A stretch of DNA of 64,000 nucleotides from Prevotella sp. E13-17 (lineage in GTDB: Bacteria > Bacteroidota > Bacteroidia > Bacteroidales > Bacteroidaceae): the NCBI RefSeq assembly GCF_022024035.1, contig NZ_CP091787.1, positions 62,001 to 126,000 on the forward strand, given 5' to 3'. The notes under the pieces are model-generated. The model ran no database searches. It was not told where the DNA came from and saw only the letters and a program-made list of their open reading frames with translations. Position 1 is the stretch's first letter, and each line of letters opens with the position of its first letter. Positions 3,025 to 63,505 of the stretch are shown here, piece by piece. The position numbers and the translations under genes were made by a program.

Positions 3025-3050
3025 CGCAAATCCAGTTAGTAGATCATCGG

Positions 3051-3122: not shown

Positions 3123-3372
3123 ATGCCGAGGAAAGAACGAAAGCATAGCGAAACGGGTATCTATCATGTAATGATACGTGGTATAAATCGTCAAGATATC
3201 TTTGACGAAGATGCTGATTATTGGACTTTGATAAGAACGCTGTCCTCAATTCAGAGAAGTGAAGTACGAAATTATCCGTTATATTATGCAAGAAATCCGC
3301 ATTGGTCCTCGACAAATGTCACGCGTTAGCGGACTGACATACTCTGTTATATATAAGTTGACAAAACAATAA
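3123..3372 (+). pseudogene. RAYT (IS200/REP-associated) transposase, internally deleted
   Basis: The first 47 codons (MPRKERKHSETGIYHVMIRG...) match the N-terminus of REP-associated tyrosine transposases, including the YHVMIRG strand. Near 3259 the frame shifts by one base. In the new frame the sequence continues as KYEIIRYIMQEIRIGPRQM and then SRVSGLTYSVIYKLTKQ to a stop at 3370-3372, which is the helix-turn-helix tail of Bacteroidota RAYTs. The catalytic core between (the HUH motif region and the Tyr) is missing; a complete protein would be much longer. This is a dead gene. Inverted repeats 3051-3061 and 3400-3410 flank it. Confidence 0.7.
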
Positions 3373-4445: not shown

Positions 4446-4742
4446 TTACTCACCGTAAACGCGAGTGGTGTGCTTGATGAACAAGCCGCCCAGAACCATC
4501 TGGTCAACATACTCCACCTGAGACACTTTCTTGATGCCACCATTCTCGGCAGCCTTCTGAATGTTGTTCTGCTTGCCCTTCGAGCTCCAAAGGCCAAGGA
4601 TGTAAGAAGACTGTGCTTCACCAACTTTCTGTCCAATCGGAGCCTTCTCAGTCAGAGCTGCACCACTGTTGATTGTTGCGCAACTGCCCAATGTGAGCGC
4701 TGCGAAAGCTGCACAAGCAGCAAGAGTCATCATTTTTTTCAT
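4446..4742 (-). CDS. TRL-like family lipoprotein
   Basis: The product is a 98-residue lipoprotein. It starts with MKKMMTLAACAAFAALTLGSC, whose lipobox LGSC predicts lipidation and envelope anchoring. The mature part (TINSGAALTEKAPIGQKVGEAQ, SYILGLWSSKGKQNNIQKAAENGGIKKVSQVEYVDQMVLGGLFIKHTTRVYGE) matches the TRL-like family pattern: a G-rich 'gxk.G.a....lg....gd..i..Aa..ggI.ki..vd.....~lgi...~t..v.G' scaffold. The family's biochemical role is unknown. It has its own promoter (4814-4845) and a strong terminator. Confidence 0.7.
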   Translation of the reverse strand: MKKMMTLAACAAFAALTLGSCATINSGAALTEKAPIGQKVGEAQSSYILGLWSSKGKQNNIQKAAENGGIKKVSQVEYVDQMVLGGLFIKHTTRVYGE

Positions 4743-4868: not shown

Positions 4869-5165
4869 AATAGCATTGCTTTTTTGTCCAGAAAGTTATG
4901 CTTTTACATCCTAAAAGCATAACTTTCGCCCCTCAATAGTATAGCTTTTGCTTCCCATCCAGCCCCTGGATGAGATGTTCCTAGCCCCTAGAAGGACCAC
5001 TTCTAGCCCATAGAAGCAGCCCATCCAGAGGCTAGAAGTGACCATTCTAGGGGCTAGAACAGAAACAATTGTTTTGATTCTAGACTTTAAAAGTGGCGTT
5101 TTTAGACTTTAGAACTAGTGCTTTTAGACTTTAAAATGAACGTTTCTAGAGTCTAGAAATGACCC
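4869..5165. repeat. 22-nt-phased array of 15-nt palindromes (array 1)
   Basis: Thirteen units lie at exactly 22-nt intervals, each a 15-nt near-palindrome plus a 7-nt linker of unrelated sequence. Unit starts and cores fall in three classes. Class A (4869, 4891, 4913, 4935): AATAGCATTGCTTTT type. Class B (4957, 4979, 5001, 5023, 5045): ATCCAGCCCCTGGAT or TTCTAGGGGCTAGAA type. Class C (5078, 5100, 5122, 5144): TTTTAGACTTTAAAA type. Between B and C lies a half-length insert of 11 nt (5067-5077). No ORF is likely. A colinear inverted copy is at 61272-61547. Linker length is kept while linker sequence is not. Confidence 0.85.
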
Positions 5166-5262
5166 ACAACCCCCTCCCGACCTCCCCACAACCCCCTCCC
5201 AACCTCCCCAATGGGGAGGGGAAGAGACCCACTCCCGACCCCTCCCTGAATGGAGGGGAGTA
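5166..5262. repeat. C-rich tract with hairpins beside array 1
   Basis: The segment repeats CCCCCTCCC and CCTCCCC motifs and holds two hairpins: CTCCCCAATGGGGAG (5206-5220) and CCCCTCC(CTGAAT)GGAGGGG (5239-5258). A similar G/C-rich element adjoins array 2 on the same (class C) side. Confidence 0.6.
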
Positions 5263-5267
5263 AATAG

Positions 5268-5470
5268 AAAAGTATGTTCGTAAAAAAAAGTATGTTCGTA
5301 TGTTCTTTCAGTCGCTTCGCTTTCTTGCCTTGCAAGCGTCACCCTTCGGGATGCCGAGCGGTGAAAGCGGCAGAGCCGAGCGATTATGTCTTTTTAAAAA
5401 AAGTATGTTCGTATGTTATTATGTCTTTAAAAAAGGTTATTATGTCTTTCTCCTCTGTTAGTATGTCTGA
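5268..5470. repeat. Non-coding strip with short TATGTTCGTA/TATGTCTTT repeats
   Basis: TATGTTCGTA occurs at 5273, 5291 and 5404; TATGTCTTT occurs at 5385, 5420 and 5441. Between them is a GC-rich inverted repeat (TCGCTTCGCTTTC near 5312 against GAAAGCGG...GAGCGA near 5363-5384). I see no gene in it. Confidence 0.5.
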
Positions 5471-5487
5471 TTTTCGAAAATTCTGTG

Positions 5488-5495
5488 TATCTTTG
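5488..5495 (+). promoter_or_regulatory. Promoter -7 element, near-leaderless start
   Basis: TATCTTTG fits TAnnTTTG and ends only 4 nt before the ATG at 5500. Transcription would begin at or next to the start codon. No clear -33 box is visible. Confidence 0.55.
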
Positions 5496-5499
5496 CGGC

Positions 5500-7617
5500 A
5501 TGAAACTAAAACAACTATTACTAGTATCTCTTCTTTGCTTTGTCTGCTTGCCTATGCCGATGGCAGGCAAACAGAAACGCATACTCACCGAGAAAGATAT
5601 GGGGGCCTATCTCTTCACCTATTTCACAGACCCCACCCACTCGCTGTTCATGGCCATCAGCTATGACGGCTACAACTTCACACCTGTGAACAATGGCGAA
5701 CCTATCATTGCCGGCGATAGCATTGCCGAGCAGCATGGCATACGTGATCCGCATATCTACCGGGCACCCAACGGCAAGTTCTATATTGCCATGACCGACC
5801 TCCATGTGTTTGGCAAGCAGAAAGGACTGCGCACCACACAGTGGGAACGCCCCGACAGGTATGGCTGGGGCAACAACCGCGGACTGGTGCTGATGGCCAG
5901 TGACGACCTGATTCACTGGACGCACCATGTGGCGCGCATTGATAAGCTCTTTCCAGAAAAGTTTGGAGAGATAGGCTGTGCCTGGGCACCGCAGACCATC
6001 TGGGACCCCACGGTGGGCAAGCCCATGGTCTATTTCACCATCCGCGAGAAGGCCGGCGAGCGCACCAAGCTGTACTATAGCTATGCCGATGAGGCTTTCA
6101 CCACGCTGGAGACCGAGCCCCAGCTGCTCTTTGAATACCCCGACGAGCAGACACAGGTGCTCGATGCCGACATCTGCCCGATGCCCGACGGCCGCTACTT
6201 CATGACCTACGTGTCGCAAGAGAACCCTGGCGGCATCAAGTATATGACGAGTGACCGCATCAACCACTTCGACGATTACCATGCCGAGCAGATAGACGGC
6301 GAGAACAGTGGTTGCGAGGCTCCCAATGTGTGGAAGCGCATCGGCGAGAAGAAATGGGTGGTGATGTACGACATCTATAGTGTGAACCCTCATAACTTCG
6401 GCTTCGTGGAGACGTCAGACTTCAAGACCTTCAAGCCGCTGGGCCGATTCAACGAGGGCGTGATGAAGATAAAGGGGGTGAAGTCGCCGAAACATGGGTC
6501 GGTGATTCACATCACCAAGGCAGAGGCCAAGCGACTGGAACAGTATTGGAACCAGCAACAACAGAAGCCGCGCACCCTTGCCAATGGCGCACTGTGGCGC
6601 GACGAGAGTGGCCGTCATATCAATGCCCACGGTGGCGGCGTCATGAAGTATGGCGATACGTATTATTGGTTTGGCGAACATAAGGACGACCATACCAGCA
6701 GTGCCATGGTGGGGGTGATGTGCTACGCCTCGAAAGACCTGGTGAACTGGCGCAACTGTGGTGTGGCGCTGAGTGTCAGCGATGAGCGCGGCCACGACAT
6801 AGAACGCGGCTGCATATTGGAGCGCCCGAAGGTAATATATAATAAGGTGACGGGCAAGTTCTGCATGTGGTTCCACCTGGAACTGAAAGGACAGGGCTAC
6901 GCTGCCGCTCGCTATGGCGTGGCAGTGGCTGATCGCCCCGAAGGACCCTATAAGTTCTTGTATTCGCAAAGGGCCAATGCGGGCACGTGGCCCGTGGAAA
7001 TGCAGAATGCACAGAGTCAGGCGCTATTAGACACACTCAACGTGGCCCATTTTGAGAAGTGGTGGACGCCAGCATGGTACGAAGCCCTGCGAAACGGACT
7101 CTTCGTGAAGCGCGACTTCGCCACAGGCCAGATGGCGCGCGACATGACGCTCTATGTGGATGACGACGGCAAGGCCTACCATATTTTCTCGTCGGAAGAC
7201 AACATGACACTGCACGTGGCTGAGCTGACGGCCGACTACCTGCATCACACCGGTCGTTACACCCGTGTGGCAGCAGGCGGACAGAACGAGGCACCGGCCA
7301 TCTTCAAGCACGACGGCACCTACTGGATGATTACCTCGGGTTGCACCGGTTGGGACCCCAACGAGGCCCGCATGTTCTCGGCACCCAGCATCTGGGGCCC
7401 ATGGACGCAGCACCCCAATCCCTGTCGCGGACCCAAGGCCGAGAAGACCTTCGGCGGACAGAGCACTTACGTGTTGACGCTCGACGACGGTCATCATATC
7501 TTCATGGCCGACATCTGGCGCCCGCGCCATCCCCGCGATGCCCGCTACGTCTGGATTCCCATCGACTTTGAGAATGGCAAGCCAGTTGTGCGCTGGTGCG
7601 ATGAGGTTTCGTTCTGA
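5500..7617 (+). CDS. Exported double GH43 glycosidase
   Basis: From ATG 5500 (a GTG at 5485 would lie inside the promoter) the product is 705 residues with a signal peptide (LKQLLLVSLLCFVCLPMPMAG). Two five-bladed propeller domains follow. Domain 1 (about 30-345) has the GH43 triad pattern: Asp in GIRDPHIY, Asp in VLDADICPMPDG and Glu in GCEAPNVWKR. Domain 2 (about 365-700) begins INAHGGGVMKYGDTYYWFGE, with ERPKVIYN, RDMTLYVDDDG and NEAPAIFKHDG. This is typical of the GH43 subfamilies containing exo-beta-1,3-galactanases and related enzymes (GH43_24/34-like). It probably trims galactan or arabinogalactan side chains. It is monocistronic, between its own promoter and a strong terminator, and is not tied to a SusC/D pair. 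Confidence 0.75.
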   Translation: MKLKQLLLVSLLCFVCLPMPMAGKQKRILTEKDMGAYLFTYFTDPTHSLFMAISYDGYNFTPVNNGEPIIAGDSIAEQHGIRDPHIYRAPNGKFYIAMTDLHVFGKQKGLRTTQWERPDRYGWGNNRGLVLMASDDLIHWTHHVARIDKLFPEKFGEIGCAWAPQTIWDPTVGKPMVYFTIREKAGERTKLYYSYADEAFTTLETEPQLLFEYPDEQTQVLDADICPMPDGRYFMTYVSQENPGGIKYMTSDRINHFDDYHAEQIDGENSGCEAPNVWKRIGEKKWVVMYDIYSVNPHNFGFVETSDFKTFKPLGRFNEGVMKIKGVKSPKHGSVIHITKAEAKRLEQYWNQQQQKPRTLANGALWRDESGRHINAHGGGVMKYGDTYYWFGEHKDDHTSSAMVGVMCYASKDLVNWRNCGVALSVSDERGHDIERGCILERPKVIYNKVTGKFCMWFHLELKGQGYAAARYGVAVADRPEGPYKFLYSQRANAGTWPVEMQNAQSQALLDTLNVAHFEKWWTPAWYEALRNGLFVKRDFATGQMARDMTLYVDDDGKAYHIFSSEDNMTLHVAELTADYLHHTGRYTRVAAGGQNEAPAIFKHDGTYWMITSGCTGWDPNEARMFSAPSIWGPWTQHPNPCRGPKAEKTFGGQSTYVLTLDDGHHIFMADIWRPRHPRDARYVWIPIDFENGKPVVRWCDEVSF

Positions 7618-26926: not shown

Positions 26927-26945
26927 TTGTTATTTGAAAGGTTTT

Positions 26946-27001
26946 GTATGGTCAAACCTGCAGTTTCGGAGTGCCAAACTTCAACTGTAGGCTTGACATA
27001 C
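26946..27001 (+). terminator. Long hairpin, possible attenuator or terminator
   Basis: GTATG-GTCAAACCTGCAGTT pairs with AACTGTAGGCTTGACATAC over about 18 bp, with one bulge, one mismatch and one G-U pair. It lies just after the DUF4832 lipoprotein gene. No strong T run follows, so partial read-through into the enzyme genes is possible. Confidence 0.5.
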
Positions 27002-27008
27002 AATTTAA

Positions 27009-27074
27009 ATTGCCGACCAAAATAAATTTAATTGTACGGCAAAATAAATTATATTGCTGAGCAAAATAATCTAA
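27009..27074. repeat. Three 22-nt tandem units, AT-rich
   Basis: Three units start at 27009, 27031 and 27053 with exact 22-nt spacing; a fourth ATGG lies at 27075. Each has ATTG, a variable 5-nt stretch (CCGAC, TACGG, CTGAG) and CAAAATAA-type sequence. Read across unit borders the kept part, CAAAATAAATTTAATTG, is a loose palindrome. The period is that of arrays 1 and 2 but the sequence is different. Confidence 0.6.
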
Positions 27075-27091
27075 ATGGTTATATCAAGGCA

Positions 27092-27121
27092 TAGCTTTGA
27101 CCACATGAAACTTTAGGTTTG
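27092..27121 (+). promoter_or_regulatory. Possible internal promoters before the enzyme genes
   Basis: TAGCTTTG (27092-27099) and TAGGTTTG (27114-27121) both fit TAnnTTTG. Neither has a clear TTTG at 19-21 nt upstream, so at most weak or regulated promoters are suggested. Confidence 0.35.
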
Positions 27122-27191
27122 ATAACGTCATAGGACAAAGCTTACAAAAAGAACAATAATAAAAAATACAATACAAGCAGTATTATCGTCG

Positions 27192-59195: not shown

Positions 59196-60443
59196 ATGAA
59201 AAGATTATTTGTTGCATTATCACTTGTCTGCTGCCAGCTGTCATTCAGCATGGCGCAAGATTACTATTACAACCCCGTCATCAATCGCAGTCTGCCCGAT
59301 CCCAGCGTCATCAAGGCCTCCGATGGCTACTTCTACTTGTATGCCACCGAGGACACCCACAACGTGCCCATCTATCGCTCTAAGAACCTGGTGAACTGGC
59401 GCTATGTCGCCACGGCCTTCACCGATGCCACACGTCCCATGGACTATTGTCCTAACGGAGGCATCTGGGCGCCCGACATCAACTACATCAATGGTCAGTA
59501 TGTGCTCTACTACTCCAAGTCGGAGTGGGGCAAGACCTGGGAGAATGGCATTGGTGTGGCTGTCAGCAGTCGCCCCGACGGCGGTTTCCACAGTGCCCAC
59601 AAGCTATTCCTCTCCAGCGAGATTGGCATCGAAAACTGCATAGACCCCTTCTTCATCGAGGACGACGGCCACAACTATCTGTTCTGGGGCTCGTTCCACG
59701 ACATCTATGGCGTAGAGCTCACCGAAGACGGACTGGCCATCAAGGAGGGCTGCACACCCAAGAAGATTGCCGGCGGACTGATCGAGGCCACCATGATTGT
59801 CAAGCACGATGGCTACTTCTACCTCATCGGCTCGGCTGGCTCATGTTGCGAGGGTGCTAACAGCACCTACCGCTTGGTGATGACGCGTGCAACAGATATC
59901 TTCGGACCCTATCTCGACCGTAACGGACGCACAGCTGTAGGCGACAATTTCACACTTCTGCTCCAAAAGAGTCCTGAGGTCTATGGCCCTGGCCACTGCT
60001 CTGAGTTTGTCGAAGACGATGCCGGTCAGACCTGGGTGCTCTATCATGGTTTCCCGTCAGATAATGTCAACCTGGGTCGCGTCACCTATCTCGACCGCAT
60101 TGTCTGGAAGAAAGACGGTTGGCCATCTATTGCGCGCAGCATGCCTTCTACCGAGGCCGAGGTGCCTCTCTTTGGTGATGCTGTCGGCATCGACAGTGTC
60201 TCTGCTTCGGCCGACGATGAGTTCCTCTTCCTGCCCACCGAGGCTCCTGGCATGTACCGCATTGAGAGCCCCGACAGCGAGCCCTACACGTGGCGACTGG
60301 TCAATGCCAACGGTGTGCAGAAGCTCAGAGGCACCGGCACTGGCACCATCATCGTTGATGCCTCGCAGATGCCTTCCGGCATGTATGTCATTGAAGTTCA
60401 GACCAAGCATGGTCATCAATCTAAAAAGATCGTCAAAGGATAA
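59196..60443 (+). CDS. GH43 glycosidase with C-terminal sorting domain
   Basis: A 415-residue secreted enzyme (signal LFVALSLVCCQLSFSMA-Q). The propeller has the GH43 triad Asp35 (LPDPSVI), Asp150 (NCIDPFF) and Glu197 (LIEATMI), and the blocks GGIWAPDINYINGQYVLYYS (one strand pair) and VYGPGHCSEF. It resembles the arabinanase/arabinofuranosidase branch of GH43. Residues about 345-415 are a beta-sandwich resembling a full type IX sorting domain (RLVNANGVQKL, MPSGMYVIEVQTKHG, KKIVKG). It is the last gene of PUL 2, behind a stem-loop and before a strong terminator. Confidence 0.85.
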   Translation: MKRLFVALSLVCCQLSFSMAQDYYYNPVINRSLPDPSVIKASDGYFYLYATEDTHNVPIYRSKNLVNWRYVATAFTDATRPMDYCPNGGIWAPDINYINGQYVLYYSKSEWGKTWENGIGVAVSSRPDGGFHSAHKLFLSSEIGIENCIDPFFIEDDGHNYLFWGSFHDIYGVELTEDGLAIKEGCTPKKIAGGLIEATMIVKHDGYFYLIGSAGSCCEGANSTYRLVMTRATDIFGPYLDRNGRTAVGDNFTLLLQKSPEVYGPGHCSEFVEDDAGQTWVLYHGFPSDNVNLGRVTYLDRIVWKKDGWPSIARSMPSTEAEVPLFGDAVGIDSVSASADDEFLFLPTEAPGMYRIESPDSEPYTWRLVNANGVQKLRGTGTGTIIVDASQMPSGMYVIEVQTKHGHQSKKIVKG

Positions 60444-60471
60444 CTATCGCACAGCGATATCTCGATGTTTG

Positions 60472-60508
60472 TCGGGCTCCTGTCAAAAGGCATGGAGCCC
60501 GATTTTTT
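60472..60508 (+). terminator. Terminator of PUL 2
   Basis: TCGGGCTCC pairs with GGAGCCCGA (9 bp) around a 13-nt loop, then six T residues. Confidence 0.88.
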
Positions 60509-60560
60509 GTCTCAGTCCAATCGGCACCGCCTTAGTGGTTCGTCTTCAGTCTGTGTTTAT

Positions 60561-60655
60561 TGAACCTTGCGCAGCCCCTCCCCTCCCATGTAGGGGAGGG
60601 GTCGGGGGTGGGGTCAGTGATGTTCTAACTGCCAATGGAGATACAGACCCCACCC
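60561..60655. repeat. 95-bp GC-rich repeat, copy 1 (G-quadruplex motif)
   Basis: It matches 61111-61205 at 93 of 95 positions (differences at 60569 and 60620). It holds the hairpin CCCCTCCCCT / AGGGGAGGGG and four G runs (GGGG, GGGG, GGGGG, GGGG) at 60593-60613. Its GGTGGGGTC can pair with the later GACCCCACC. Confidence 0.85.
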
Positions 60656-60746
60656 CGGCCCTCCCGGGGGAGGGAGATATTCTCGATTGGATTCCTGTTT
60701 CTAGTTTCTTCATTGTATTATTCGGTTAATTGTTTGTTTTTAAACG

Positions 60747-60843
60747 CCTACGGATTTTACGGATTATACGAATTAAAAATCGATATGAATACGTTGACTC
60801 CGTAGGCTGAAAAAAAATTCGTAAAATCCGTAAAATCCGTAGG
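60747..60843. repeat. 28-bp inverted repeat of TACGGATTT units
   Basis: Arms 60747-60774 and 60816-60843 pair at 27 of 28 positions around a 41-nt AT-rich loop. Each arm contains CCTACGGATTTTACGGATT. It resembles dispersed repeats of Bacteroidota genomes and has no ORF. Confidence 0.8.
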
Positions 60844-60984
60844 TAAAATAAAGTTTTCATTGGTTGGAACCGCCTACGGCGGGAAATTCTTCAAAATTGA
60901 AAACAAAATTTTTCATTTTTATTTTTTTTCTTGTCTGACACAAGCCGAATGGATAAAAGATCCTGTTTAATTTTGAATCAGATT

Positions 60985-61087
60985 TTGAAAAATTTCCCTG
61001 CGCAGCAGGCTAAAACTTCCGCGATTGAGGCCGCCTACGTCGGGAAGGTTTAGCTCGACGGCCGACAGGGGAAGTCAAATTTTTCAA
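60985..61087. repeat. Structured non-coding element
   Basis: The ends TTGAAAAATTT (60985-60995) and AAATTTTTCAA (61077-61087) are exact inverted repeats. Inside are GC palindromes (CTGCGCAGCAG, GCCTACGTCGG against CGACGGC). CCGCCTACGGCGGGAA at about 60870-60885 is an outside relative of the inner CCGCCTACGTCGGGAA at about 61030-61045. No protein is encoded. Confidence 0.5.
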
Positions 61088-61110
61088 CCTGTGCGGTTGT
61101 TTCCTTAGCT

Positions 61111-61205
61111 TGAACCTTACGCAGCCCCTCCCCTCCCATGTAGGGGAGGGGTCGGGGGTGGGGTCAGTGTTGTTCTAACTGCCAATGGAGATACAGACCC
61201 CACCC
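61111..61205. repeat. 95-bp GC-rich repeat, copy 2 (G-quadruplex motif)
   Basis: Direct repeat of 60561-60655, 550 bp downstream, with the four G runs at 61143-61163. A degenerate part repeat (CCCCACCCCGGCCCTCCC) follows at about 61222-61239, next to array 2. Confidence 0.85.
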
Positions 61206-61271
61206 GGCCCTCCAAAAGGAACCCCACCCCGGCCCTCCCAAGGGAGGGAGATATATGTCTTGAATTGGCAT

Positions 61272-61547
61272 TTCCAGAGTCAGAAGAGGGCCGCTTTTAA
61301 AGTCTAAAAGCACGTGTTCTAATGTCTAAAAGAGGCGCTTCTGAAGTCTAAAACCGAAGCTATCATTTCTGGTCTAGCCCCTGGATGCTCTACATCCAGC
61401 CCTTAGAACGACCGCATCCAGGGGCTAAAACGACCCGTTCCAGGGGCTGGATACACCACATCCAGGGGCTGGACGGACATCAAAAGTAAAGCTATTACAA
61501 CGCAAAAGCGAAACTATAACAAGACGAAAGCAGCACTATGACAGTGC
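61272..61547. repeat. 22-nt-phased array of 15-nt palindromes (array 2, inverted)
   Basis: Unit starts: class C at 61272 (slightly decayed), 61295, 61317, 61339; an 11-nt insert 61361-61371; class B at 61372, 61394, 61416, 61438, 61460; class A at 61482, 61504, 61526. A decayed unit may follow at 61548. Spacing is 22 nt throughout apart from the decayed first unit (23 nt). Read on the minus strand, the order A-B-11-C and the sequence of unit centres (CCCC, CCCC, CCCC, AGGG, GGGG in class B) match array 1 unit by unit, while the 7-nt linkers differ. Confidence 0.85.
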
Positions 61548-61813
61548 GAAACCGTTCCTATCCCGACCAAGAACACCCCCACCACGACTTTCCCGATGGA
61601 GGTTTTTGTTACTAAAAAATGGCTGCAGAGCTTGCTTGGGGTGGGATGGAGAGAAAAAATGTCATATTTTTCTCGATTTTCTATATAAAAAAGGTGCTTG
61701 ATAGCGATTTCTTTTTGCTTCAAAAAACATCGGTTTCATCGGCGATTTCGTGAATTATTCACTTTTTGTGTTCAAAAATGTTCGAAAATGTTCGATTTTT
61801 TATGGGAAAAACA

Positions 61814-61845
61814 TTTGGCTGATTCCTTAATTGTTTCTACTTTTG
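61814..61845 (+). promoter_or_regulatory. Consensus promoter of the M16 peptidase genes
   Basis: TTTG (61814-61817), 20 nt, TACTTTTG (61838-61845). The start site would be near 61850, leaving an untranslated leader of nearly 200 nt before the ATG at 62048. I see no riboswitch that I can name in that leader. The gap 61548-61813 has short AAAATGTTCG repeats (61770-61795) and no gene. Confidence 0.8.
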
Positions 61846-62047
61846 CACCCGACCAATGACTAAATAGTCAACTCAAAACTTTAAGTAATAATGACTGTTG
61901 TGATATTTTAGGTGATAAGACGGAAGAGCTTAAGACGCTTGCTCCGATCACAAGATGGTTAAAGCATGTCATACGATAAGTGTGCGTGTTTGAACCTCAC
62001 AACGACTGTGCATCTATATGTAAATATCTGAATAAAAAATAAAACTT

Positions 62048-63505
62048 ATGGAGAGAAATAAACTGTTACTCTTGCTTGTCTGTTTTCTGGGATTACAGGC
62101 AATGGCGAAAACAGAAAAGGTTAAGTATGAAGATTTTCTCTTAAGAGATTCTTCACGTGTTATTTGCAGAACGCTGGACAATGGCTTTCGGTATTTTATA
62201 CAAAAGCAACCAATGGGAAGCCTGCAAATGTCTTTGATACAGAAAACCGGATTCTTGCAAGATGGAGAAACGGTAGAGTGCTCGCATTTCGTGGAGCACA
62301 TGATGCTGACCGCTAACCGAGTGATGGCAACAGGAGATACGTTAAGAAGCTATCTTAATAAGCTTGGTATGGACTACGGCATGAACTTCAACGCCTATAC
62401 TTCTAGGACGTTTACGAAATATGACTTAGTAAGCTCAAGAACAGACGAGGCGTATGTTGATTCTTGCCTGGAGATACTCTCTGATATTGCCGGTGGCGCC
62501 AGTATCTGTGCCATGGACTTGGAAGAACAGAGAGAAAGAATGTATAATGAGGTGTACAACAGATATTTTAATGTTTTTGCCAGACAGGCAGATGCTTCTG
62601 AAGCCGTTTTCTTGTATGGACGCACTCCCGACGAATGGCACCAGATGAGGTTGGACGGCACAAAGAGGATGACACAGTCTCAGCTTGAGAACTTCTATAA
62701 CACATGGTATCAGCCACAGCATCAGTGCCTCGTGCTGACAGGCGATGTCACCGATGGGGTGGAGGATATGATAAAGCGTAAATTCGGCAGTCGTCCAAGC
62801 ATGCCGACCCCTGCAGTGGCGGTAGGTGACTTTAGCAAGCAGAATCTGATGATAGAAAGACACGGGAAAGCGGAATTTAGAATCAAGCTAACGTTCACTC
62901 AGCCTCTTCTGACTCAGTCAGAGAAAGAGACCCCCAAGTTTTTTAAAGACTACTTTGCGCTGAAAAAAAGTTGTTCTGCACTACATGACAGAATGGTGAA
63001 GAGTGCAAATGACGATCTGGCTTTGGTTGTTGGCTATCAATTGGAAGATCGTTTTGCTTTGCTGATGCAATATATATATAGCATCAATGGCGAGGATGCT
63101 GACGGTGGCTTGATGGCTCTCGCAGATAGCGTGGCAAACTTCCTCGATGACATTCGCAACAATGGCGTACAGATAAAAATGCCTAAGGATATGCTTAACA
63201 AGAAAGAGTTTGCGCTGCAACGTGCGCAGGCACTGAAGAAATTGCAGGAGGGCGACGGCAAGGATAATACCATTGATCCTGTAACGCCTATAAGTGAATG
63301 CGCCATTTATTCCTTGCCACTCTACAAGCAGGAAGACACCGACGCTTACTGGTCGTATGAACTCAGCGGCAAAGATGTGTCGGATTATTGCAAGCAGTTC
63401 ATCAAAAAGTCTGGCTTAAAGATAGAGTGTATCCTGCCATACGGTTATCCCGAGCGTGAGATTTCAGAGAAGTTGAATGCTCTTTTGAGACAATATAATA
63501 ATTAA
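62048..63505 (+). CDS. Exported M16 family zinc peptidase
   Basis: A 485-residue exported peptidase (signal LLLLLVCFLGLQAMA-K). The inverted zinc motif H-x-x-E-H is present as His80, Glu83, His84 (CSHFVEHMM), and the third ligand Glu lies about 76 residues on (LEEQRERMYNEV, near residue 160). RTLDNGFRYFIQKQPMG is the family's first strand pair. The second half (about 250-485) is the inactive M16-like domain (MIERHGKAEFRIKLTF). It is shorter than the large Bacteroidota M16 proteins of about 940 residues. It acts in the periplasm on peptides and is followed 39 nt later by a related gene, so a heterodimer is likely. Confidence 0.85.
   Translation: MERNKLLLLLVCFLGLQAMAKTEKVKYEDFLLRDSSRVICRTLDNGFRYFIQKQPMGSLQMSLIQKTGFLQDGETVECSHFVEHMMLTANRVMATGDTLRSYLNKLGMDYGMNFNAYTSRTFTKYDLVSSRTDEAYVDSCLEILSDIAGGASICAMDLEEQRERMYNEVYNRYFNVFARQADASEAVFLYGRTPDEWHQMRLDGTKRMTQSQLENFYNTWYQPQHQCLVLTGDVTDGVEDMIKRKFGSRPSMPTPAVAVGDFSKQNLMIERHGKAEFRIKLTFTQPLLTQSEKETPKFFKDYFALKKSCSALHDRMVKSANDDLALVVGYQLEDRFALLMQYIYSINGEDADGGLMALADSVANFLDDIRNNGVQIKMPKDMLNKKEFALQRAQALKKLQEGDGKDNTIDPVTPISECAIYSLPLYKQEDTDAYWSYELSGKDVSDYCKQFIKKSGLKIECILPYGYPEREISEKLNALLRQYNN

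What the first reader, a model, noticed from the sequence alone, without database searches (positions are those of the whole stretch)
4869..5165. Undescribed array: thirteen 15-nt palindromes phased at exactly 22 nt
Units start at 4869, 4891, 4913, 4935, 4957, 4979, 5001, 5023, 5045, then after an 11-nt insert at 5078, 5100, 5122, 5144. Every core is a near-palindrome centred on its 8th base, with a 7-nt linker of unrelated sequence. Three core classes (AATAG..CTTTT, ATCCAG/TTCTAG..CTGGAT/CTAGAA, TTTTAGACTTTAAAA) occur in blocks. 22 bp is about two helical turns and the 11-nt insert about one, so all centres would lie on nearly the same DNA face. This fits an array of binding sites for a dimeric protein, or a transcript that folds into a row of small hairpins. 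It is not a CRISPR: cores vary and linkers are too short.
Basis: partly seen in the sequence, partly recalled or inferred. Interest (0 to 1): 0.8.

Follow-up and report, generated by a model that had tools for sequence, protein, structure and literature searches.

The report
Phased palindrome arrays across Prevotella genomes
The array is real and is one of at least forty in this bacterium's genome, with similar ones in many related genomes, all built on a strict 22-base lattice of paired half-sites that look like docking sites for a two-part DNA-binding protein not yet identified.

Summary
Confirmed, and larger than reported. The 13 units at 4869-5158 lie on an exact 22-bp lattice with one 11-bp half-step, beyond Markov nulls. 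The window holds two more arrays (26942-27132, weaker; 61295-61562); the host chromosome has at least 40 composite copies of one architecture: A units, five C units, half-unit, T units, sometimes A units again. Xylanibacter brevis ATCC 19188 and Prevotella sp. RUI122 carry divergent versions, several at orthologous loci; other genus members carry A-only arrays (AAAAG-n5-CTTTT). In an order-wide sample of 295 genomes only the host and three genomes of other families matched.

Half-site positions change less than linkers between orthologous arrays (3.3% against 7.9%, p=5e-6). Arms within a unit do not covary in class C and do so only weakly in class T, which favours protein-DNA recognition over small hairpins. 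A small, diffuse excess of complementarity between units remains and keeps an RNA or cruciform rival alive. RAYT/REP, CRISPR and replication-polar motifs do not fit. One species group's version is in print as PINSR, a 188-bp repeat of unknown function; what I read of that paper mentions no lattice. Best reading: intergenic lattices for dimeric DNA-binding proteins, unidentified; a mobile-repeat origin is the main rival.

The parts
4869..4949 (+). Class A block: four units (xAWAG-n5-CTWTx) at 22-bp steps
   Evidence: model R1 match 46.5 bits, E 1.9e-13
4957..5059 (+). Class C block: five units (xTYYAG-SSS-CTRRAx); the usual pattern is three CCC-type cores then two GGG-type cores, here with small deviations
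5067..5077 (+). 11-nt half-unit insert that keeps the lattice in phase
   Evidence: present in divergent arrays
5078..5158 (+). Class T block: four units (TYYAGACTTTRRA-like) at 22-bp steps
5163..5210 (+). Adjacent C-rich tandem repeat, also period 22 (2.2 copies); a flanking module, not part of the palindrome lattice
   Evidence: not palindromic on the lattice
61295..61562 (-). Second composite array, reverse orientation: T units, half-unit, five C units, four A units; a fourth T unit near 61272 lies one base out of phase
   Evidence: (L007)
26942..27132 (.). Third, weaker array between two genes: nine lattice positions at 22 bp, with a W-rich centre (AAAAT-aaatt-TAATT type)
   Evidence: model R1 E 3.9e-5 and 2.8e-3 in the 64-kb window; best of 22 offsets, 29 of 45 pairs, second best offset is 11 bp away
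4446..4742 (-). Left neighbour gene (small predicted protein); its start lies 127 bp from the array
5485..7617 (+). Right neighbour gene; the array lies in a divergent gap here

Best explanation
The array is one member of a Prevotella-group class of intergenic repeats whose working unit is a 22-bp lattice of dimer-binding sites on double-stranded DNA. SHOWN: exact phasing; conserved half-sites; more variable linkers; class order A-C-half-unit-T in composites, sometimes with a second A block; placement outside called genes and without orientation preference in the host; positional conservation of a number of arrays between close species; species-specific cores. INFERRED: each 22-bp unit holds one protein dimer (a half-site about every 11 bp, alternating in direction), neighbouring dimers touch, and the site classes are read by related proteins or by one protein with relaxed specificity, so that each array becomes a coated, overwound or bent tract. 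The most likely role is architectural (supercoil barrier, domain or gene insulation). The protein is unknown.
For: At least 40 composite copies in the host chromosome (40 distinct places; only 40 of 96 candidates there, and 40 of 111, were scored). Intervals of 12-48 bp between neighbouring exact A units: 114 of 132 are 22, 15 are 44, 3 are 21; exact C/T units: 85 of 117 are 22, 29 are 44; with one mismatch allowed in A units 241 of 353 are 22, the rest spread. In 12 orthologous array pairs (some share a member) key half-site positions differ at 30 of 919, linkers 93 of 1170, other unit positions 104 of 1372, flanks 126 of 2202; key against linker p=5e-6. No arm covariation in class C (pos 4/12 p=0.82, pos 3/13 p=0.65; 77 distinct units); class A pos 3/13 is most often a T-T mismatch, 63 of 159; none within units in 10 divergent composites. 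In all 30 loci examined no called gene overlaps the matched stretch; both neighbours could be typed at 24: 14 tandem (7 each way), 6 convergent, 4 divergent. The 40 places are spread as at random (KS p=0.95) with no strand domains. Model R1 at E<=1e-3: 38 of 301 family genomes, host included, of which 23 by my count also at 1e-4; at E<=1e-4 in the order sample: 4 of 295, host included.
Against: No protein identified and no binding data. HU-HIG number does not track arrays. Between units the stem geometry shows more complementarity than 150-300 column shuffles (52.1% against 48.0% of cells, none of the shuffles as high), not explained by general relatedness or by direct unit similarity; it is diffuse, in arms not cores, and no unit pair stands out. 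Class T shows weak arm covariation (p=0.02 and 0.005, 38 distinct units), and A units of other species a weak association at positions 5/11 (p=0.013). Arrays can fold into very stable RNA. A close subfamily has 34 copies in the host and one each among the scored candidates of two relatives, which suggests mobility. At least two complete genus genomes have no match with 150 candidates scored, so the system is dispensable.
Confidence: 0.45

Rival explanations
1. Selfish miniature repeats (MITE-like) in which the lattice is the set of binding sites for a transposase supplied in trans, or simply hitch-hikes; no role for the host.
For: Close subfamily with 34 copies (91% identity or more) in the host but one each found in two relatives; mosaic ends, with at least two left and several right modules; the 188-bp G110 element has TGTAAA...TTTACA ends; copies gain or lose whole 22-bp units.
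Against: No gene recurs beside arrays apart from orthologous or overlapping loci and common families such as ABC-transporter ATPases (host loci L001-L030 were left out of that call). At the one occupied/empty pair examined (L051 against L083/L084) intergenic DNA is replaced, with no clean insertion or duplication. Many divergent arrays sit at orthologous places with conserved half-sites. The lattice is shared by elements with unrelated ends. [quoted passage not shown]
Confidence: 0.3
2. The arrays work as RNA or as extruded cruciforms: long stems between units that end, stabilise or process transcripts or are bound as structures.
For: Predicted energy far below shuffles on both strands (z -10.4 and -8.6); some arrays contain near-perfect inverted unit pairs; diffuse between-unit excess of complementarity; weak covariation in class T. 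The broader scan found 61 covarying column pairs over 0.2 against 38-60 in 20 shuffles, several of them in stem geometry.
Against: No covariation within class C units; no particular unit pair carries the between-unit signal and cores do not take part; in G110 the most variable inner pair of the unit 2/unit 4 stem is mismatched in 17 of 23 copies, the other inner pairs being mostly invariant; no orientation relative to genes; a strict 22-bp phase is not needed for stems.
Confidence: 0.15
3. Phased A-tracts give static curvature or bendability; any bending protein (HU, IHF) or none uses it.
For: A arms and T arms alternate at 11-bp steps; predicted curvature exceeds 99.5% or more of 200 shuffles for two of four pure A arrays (L041, L158; the other two 95% and 86%, wedge values recalled, mononucleotide shuffles).
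Against: The two composite arrays in the window are no more curved than shuffles; class C units have no A-tracts yet keep the same phase; bases next to the arms (G5/C11, or A5-G6/C10-T11) are conserved.
Confidence: 0.08

Closest known systems
[quoted passage not shown]
   Same: Intergenic, high copy, non-coding, 188 bp. In G110 two copies align over exactly 188 bp, a copy lies about 230 bp after the stop of a tryptophanase-like gene, as reported downstream of P. intermedia tnaA, and a named P. nigrescens record carries it (100% covered, 79.8% identity, 12 places). It contains five units on the 22-bp lattice.
   Different: The abstract, passages and section that I read mention no palindromes or periodicity in it; its figure with the consensus is not held. 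The authors found it only in that species group; the X. brevis-type composite with C and T blocks is not PINSR.
BrickBuilt MITE of Porphyromonas gingivalis, PMC4596501
   Same: Intergenic repeats built of tandem short units in a member of the same order; predicted long stem-loops; function unknown.
   Different: 23-nt direct repeats with IS5-like terminal repeats, leader and tail, 19 copies, reported only from Porphyromonas; the sections read do not describe a palindromic lattice with changing classes.
BIMEs / REP sequences with RAYT transposases (PMC3733652 passages, PMC6006769 passages and section on subclass 2.6)
   Same: High-copy intergenic palindromes, often in alternating orientation; Bacteroidetes RAYTs of subclass 2.6 are said to be flanked by atypical structures with copies elsewhere in the genome.
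   Different: Units are not 20-40 bp hairpins tagged by GTAG or CGTC; 9 of 13 array-rich genomes have no Y1 transposase match; the host's RAYT beside an array (L203) has its own GATCATGGGGACAGG hairpins, read by eye.
Iteron or centromere-like operator arrays (parC/ParR, TubR; recalled)
   Same: Works-like comparison only: rows of sites with a spacing of about one or two helical turns bound cooperatively.
   Different: Dispersed over the whole chromosome in dozens of copies; no partition genes were searched for.

Membership tests
PINSR | 188-bp intergenic repeat of the P. intermedia/nigrescens group | tested here: not met
   The window's arrays are composites of different length and sequence; the G110 and P. 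nigrescens elements fit it. They share the lattice, not membership.
MITE (such as BrickBuilt) | Terminal inverted repeats matching an IS | tested here: inconclusive
   Ends are mosaic. An AAAGGTCTC motif in the left module of some copies resembles BrickBuilt's TIR, but I saw no matching right end. No IS search was made.
MITE (such as BrickBuilt) | Target-site duplication at an occupied/empty site pair | tested here: inconclusive
   One locus only (two empty relatives): intergenic DNA replaced, no duplication seen.
REP/BIME with RAYT | Cognate Y1 (RAYT) transposase in the genome | tested here: not met
   PF01797 in 4 of 13 array-rich and 3 of 7 genomes without R1 matches; 1 of 13 Y1 loci has a detected array within its fetched flanks.
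REP/BIME with RAYT | Stem of each palindrome maintained by base pairing | tested here: not met
   No covariation within class C units; T-T mismatch common in class A; weak signal in class T.
CRISPR array | Near-identical repeats with spacers of 20 nt or more | tested here: not met
   Linkers 7 nt, units vary.
Known structured RNA | Rfam match | tested here: not met
   No Rfam match at gathering score in the window.
Dimer-operator array | A protein that binds the units | not testable with these tools
   Only sequence evidence.

The most novel reading that the evidence does not exclude
An unrecognised chromosome-organising system of Prevotella and relatives: one or more related dimeric proteins coat intergenic lattices of 22-bp units, with co-assembling site classes in a fixed order, and partition the chromosome into domains or mark it as self; species-specific cores reflect co-evolution of protein and site.
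Probability: 0.27. Interest if true: 0.85.

Novelty: new variant of a known kind. Interest (0 to 1): 0.65.

Why it matters
Prevotella is a major gut, rumen and oral genus, and little is known about how its chromosomes are organised (recalled). A shared lattice in dozens of places per genome would explain PINSR and similar unexplained repeats as versions of one system, gives a precise bait to find the binding protein, and offers a natural example of a long, composite, phased operator.

Tried and rejected
RAYT/REP: rejected. HU-HIG expansion as the partner: counts do not follow arrays (13 array-rich genomes 3 to 65 matches, 7 without R1 matches 5 to 19). Replication-polar or segregation motif: positions uniform (KS p=0.95), no strand domains. 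Convergent-gene terminator: all gap types occur. Recurrent neighbour gene: groups seen were orthologous or overlapping loci or common families (ABC-transporter ATPase, a possible sigma factor); host loci L001-L030 were left out. Phages and plasmids: no match to the window array at E<=0.01; the 188-bp element in two P. nigrescens records at E<=1e-3 (at E<=10 adds only short chance-like matches), in no phage record, and its exact 27-base pattern in three viral contigs, where my detector called no array but lattice units are visible by eye. The subfamily pattern is in no viral contig. Literature: the listings of searches showed no description of this lattice; only open-licence full texts are covered. 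Alignment A2 was made with approximate coordinates and not used; one search used lattice coordinates.

Caveats: loci were fetched by queries that carry the 22-bp spacing, so interval counts are partly conditioned, although the searches allow gaps. Covariation used only units within one mismatch of the class motif (others dropped), so mainly C/T against G/A changes are visible. Gene calls came from a simple dicodon script; 6 of 30 loci lacked a call on one or both sides. R1 matches are counted on both strands of a near-palindromic motif, so loci are about half, and 150 candidates per genome were scored; only 15 per genome with stricter filters, so genomes 'without' matches there may have some. 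Searches used different E-value limits. In one search some pairs share a member; single-base gap pairs shift a few columns; one array (L106) has a 20-bp unit.

Full report
1. Observation. On an order-3 Markov null of 60 windows, five units at period 22 never exceeded 21 paired positions (22 at any period 16-30), against 26 here. The reversed window gives no array with my class detector, while the window gives two. Tandem Repeats Finder had already shown 22-bp signals at 5078-5162, 5163-5210, 27005-27076 and, in three rows, 61292-61543.

2. More arrays. Reading 60201-62400 shows a second composite array in reverse order at about 61295-61562. A third, weaker lattice with a W-rich centre fills the gap between two genes at 26942-27132. 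Searching the host genome (one contig, 3,454,626 bases; window at 62001-126000) with the array gave 49 matches at 40 distinct places; 96 candidates existed and 40 were scored. A second query gave the same places at 91% identity or more for 34 copies. In all 30 loci examined no called gene overlaps the matched stretch; 24 could be typed as 7 tandem forward, 7 tandem reverse, 6 convergent, 4 divergent. The 40 places are uniform along the chromosome and show no strand domains.

3. Anatomy. A unit is 5 nt arm, 5 nt core, 5 nt arm, 7 nt linker. Class A: xAWAG-n5-CTWTx. Class C: xTYYAG-SSS-CTRRAx, usually three CCC cores then two GGG cores. Class T: TYYAGACTYTRRA. Order: A block, C block, 11-nt half-unit, T block and, in some copies, another A block. 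Of 19 printed arrays with both C and T blocks, 17 have the direct C-33-T step. Copies differ by whole units. Left and right ends are mosaic.

4. Relatives. A contiguous pattern in genome-contig hit Xylanibacter brevis ATCC 19188 (L049) and Prevotella sp. RUI122 (L050). L049 matches a host locus with 97-98% identical flanks, so the host is X. brevis or a near sister (inference). Among 40 scored candidates each (of 88 and 57), these two genomes carry one close copy each and many divergent composites. Several arrays are orthologous by flanks: L002/L087/L100, L003/L108, L004/L094, L010/L103/L106, L049/L060, L088/L089, L091/L102, L096/L097, L085/L086. The finding's own array matches an array (91% over query 1596-1813) on the same RUI122 contig, upstream of the orthologous right-hand gene but further away; the left-hand gene was found only in ATCC 19188, on a contig with an array (92%) at its end and a 36-bp array piece beside the gene. 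So the locus is shared but rearranged, and orthology rests on one flank.

5. Wider spread. In other genus members the arrays that I read are class A. A sequence-only model R1 from 31 four-unit windows matched 38 of 301 family genomes, host included, at E<=1e-3 (29 of 169 of good quality; 12 of 30 genera); by my count of its table 23 of them reach 1e-4. Of 11 chosen genomes 9 matched, with 38 to 228 matches counted on both strands and 150 candidates scored each; two had none. Each species has its own cores. In an order sample of 295 genomes, host included, 4 matched at E<=1e-4, 3 of them in other families; by eye G647 has tandem repeats of about 21 bp, G600 a different spacing, and in G558 I saw no array.

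6. Link to print. PMC4755523 (abstract, passages and section 3.4 read) describes PINSR: 188 bp, intergenic, 177 and 184 copies, non-coding, no terminal inverted repeats according to the authors, also downstream of tnaA. In unnamed G110 (two contigs, 1,965,935 and 708,235 bases) two copies align over exactly 188 bp; the element has TGTAAA/TTTACA ends, and one lies downstream of a 459-codon tryptophanase-like gene. It covers 100% of the query in a Prevotella nigrescens record, 12 places. I therefore read PINSR as one species group's version; the published consensus figure was not available. BrickBuilt (PMC4596501; abstract, passages, sections 5, 7 part 1 and 8 read) is similar in style but not shown to be homologous. 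PMC3733652 (passages) and PMC6006769 (passages and one section) were used for REP/RAYT.

7. What is selected. In 12 orthologous pairs, key half-site positions changed at 30 of 919 (3.3%), linkers 93 of 1170 (7.9%), other unit positions 104 of 1372 (7.6%), 150-bp flanks 126 of 2202 (5.7%); key against linker p=5e-6, against other unit positions p=1e-5, against flanks p=0.004. Larger indels sum to 22, 22 and 44 (L096/L097) and 22 (L085/L086), but to 20 in L106. If each palindrome were a stem, its arms should covary. In 77 distinct class C units positions 4/12 are 17:22:18:20 (p=0.82) and 3/13 p=0.65; class A positions 3/13 are T-T in 63 of 159; class T shows weak covariation (p=0.02, 0.005; 38 units). 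In 194 distinct A units of other species positions 5/11 are weakly associated (p=0.013), 3/13 not (p=0.45); in 23 G110 copies the between-unit pair u2.11/u4.5 is mismatched in 17.

8. Between units. RNA folding is very stable on both strands, which repeated palindromes give in any case. A scan of all column pairs in 10 divergent composites gave 61 pairs over 0.2 against 38-60 in 20 shuffles, one above the highest, with the same top score. A targeted test found more complementarity in between-unit stem geometry than any of 300 or 150 shuffles (52.1% against 48.0% of 1180 cells; double changes 0.079 against 0.053), while within-unit pairs, linkers and all column pairs showed none, and direct unit similarity little. 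The excess sits in arms (548 of 950 cells, 504.9 expected), not cores (67 of 230, 65.3 expected), and no unit pair exceeds 95% of its shuffles. This is against a purely half-site reading; it could also come from arm preferences that drift together over an array, as a protein of changing taste would cause (inference).

9. Mechanism. Rigid phase (114 of 132 exact A intervals are 22, 15 are 44), an 11-bp half-step that keeps phase, alternating half-sites, more variable linkers and lack of orientation point to cooperative dimers on DNA. Curvature alone fails because the window's composites are not curved beyond shuffles. RAYT presence and HU-HIG number do not track arrays. The architectural role is inference; a mobile-repeat reading remains the main rival, fed by the burst of the close subfamily.

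10. Verdict. Real, widespread within the genus and present elsewhere in the family, partly known as an unexplained repeat (PINSR), new as a phased half-site lattice as far as the searches named above show.

Noticed in passing
window 3123-3329: Remnant resembling the start of a Y1 (RAYT) transposase (GIYHVMIRGINRQDIF, by eye), with GGGACAGG-type repeats near 3041 and 4380; an intact relative in the genome (L203) is flanked by GATCATGGGGACAGG hairpins, a separate REP-like family.
   Followed up: partly
window 5163-5270, 60575-60680, 61120-61250: C-rich repeats (CCCTCCC/GGGAGGG) that lie beside arrays at many host loci; another dispersed repeat that forms one type of left flank.
   Followed up: no
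window 60741-60850: Inverted and tandem repeats of TACGGATT/AATCCGTA near the second array.
   Followed up: no
L009, L014, L021, L025, L026, L027 left flank: A left module with AAAGGTCTC resembles the terminal repeat of BrickBuilt and ISPg1 (IS5 family) printed in PMC4596501.
   Followed up: no
L216 (G647): A genome of another family has tandem repeats of about 21 bp (CATAGTGAAACTTTGCATTCT) that resemble class A units.
   Followed up: partly
G316: 65 HU-HIG (PF18291) matches in one genus member, against 3 to 19 in the other 19 genomes of that search.
   Followed up: no
L158 1443-1630 and other G110 copies: The 188-bp element has short inverted ends TGTAAA/TTTACA, although the PINSR paper reports no terminal inverted repeats.
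   Followed up: partly
L191, L192 (G110): Unit order is shuffled relative to other copies, as if units recombine or are exchanged between copies.
   Followed up: no
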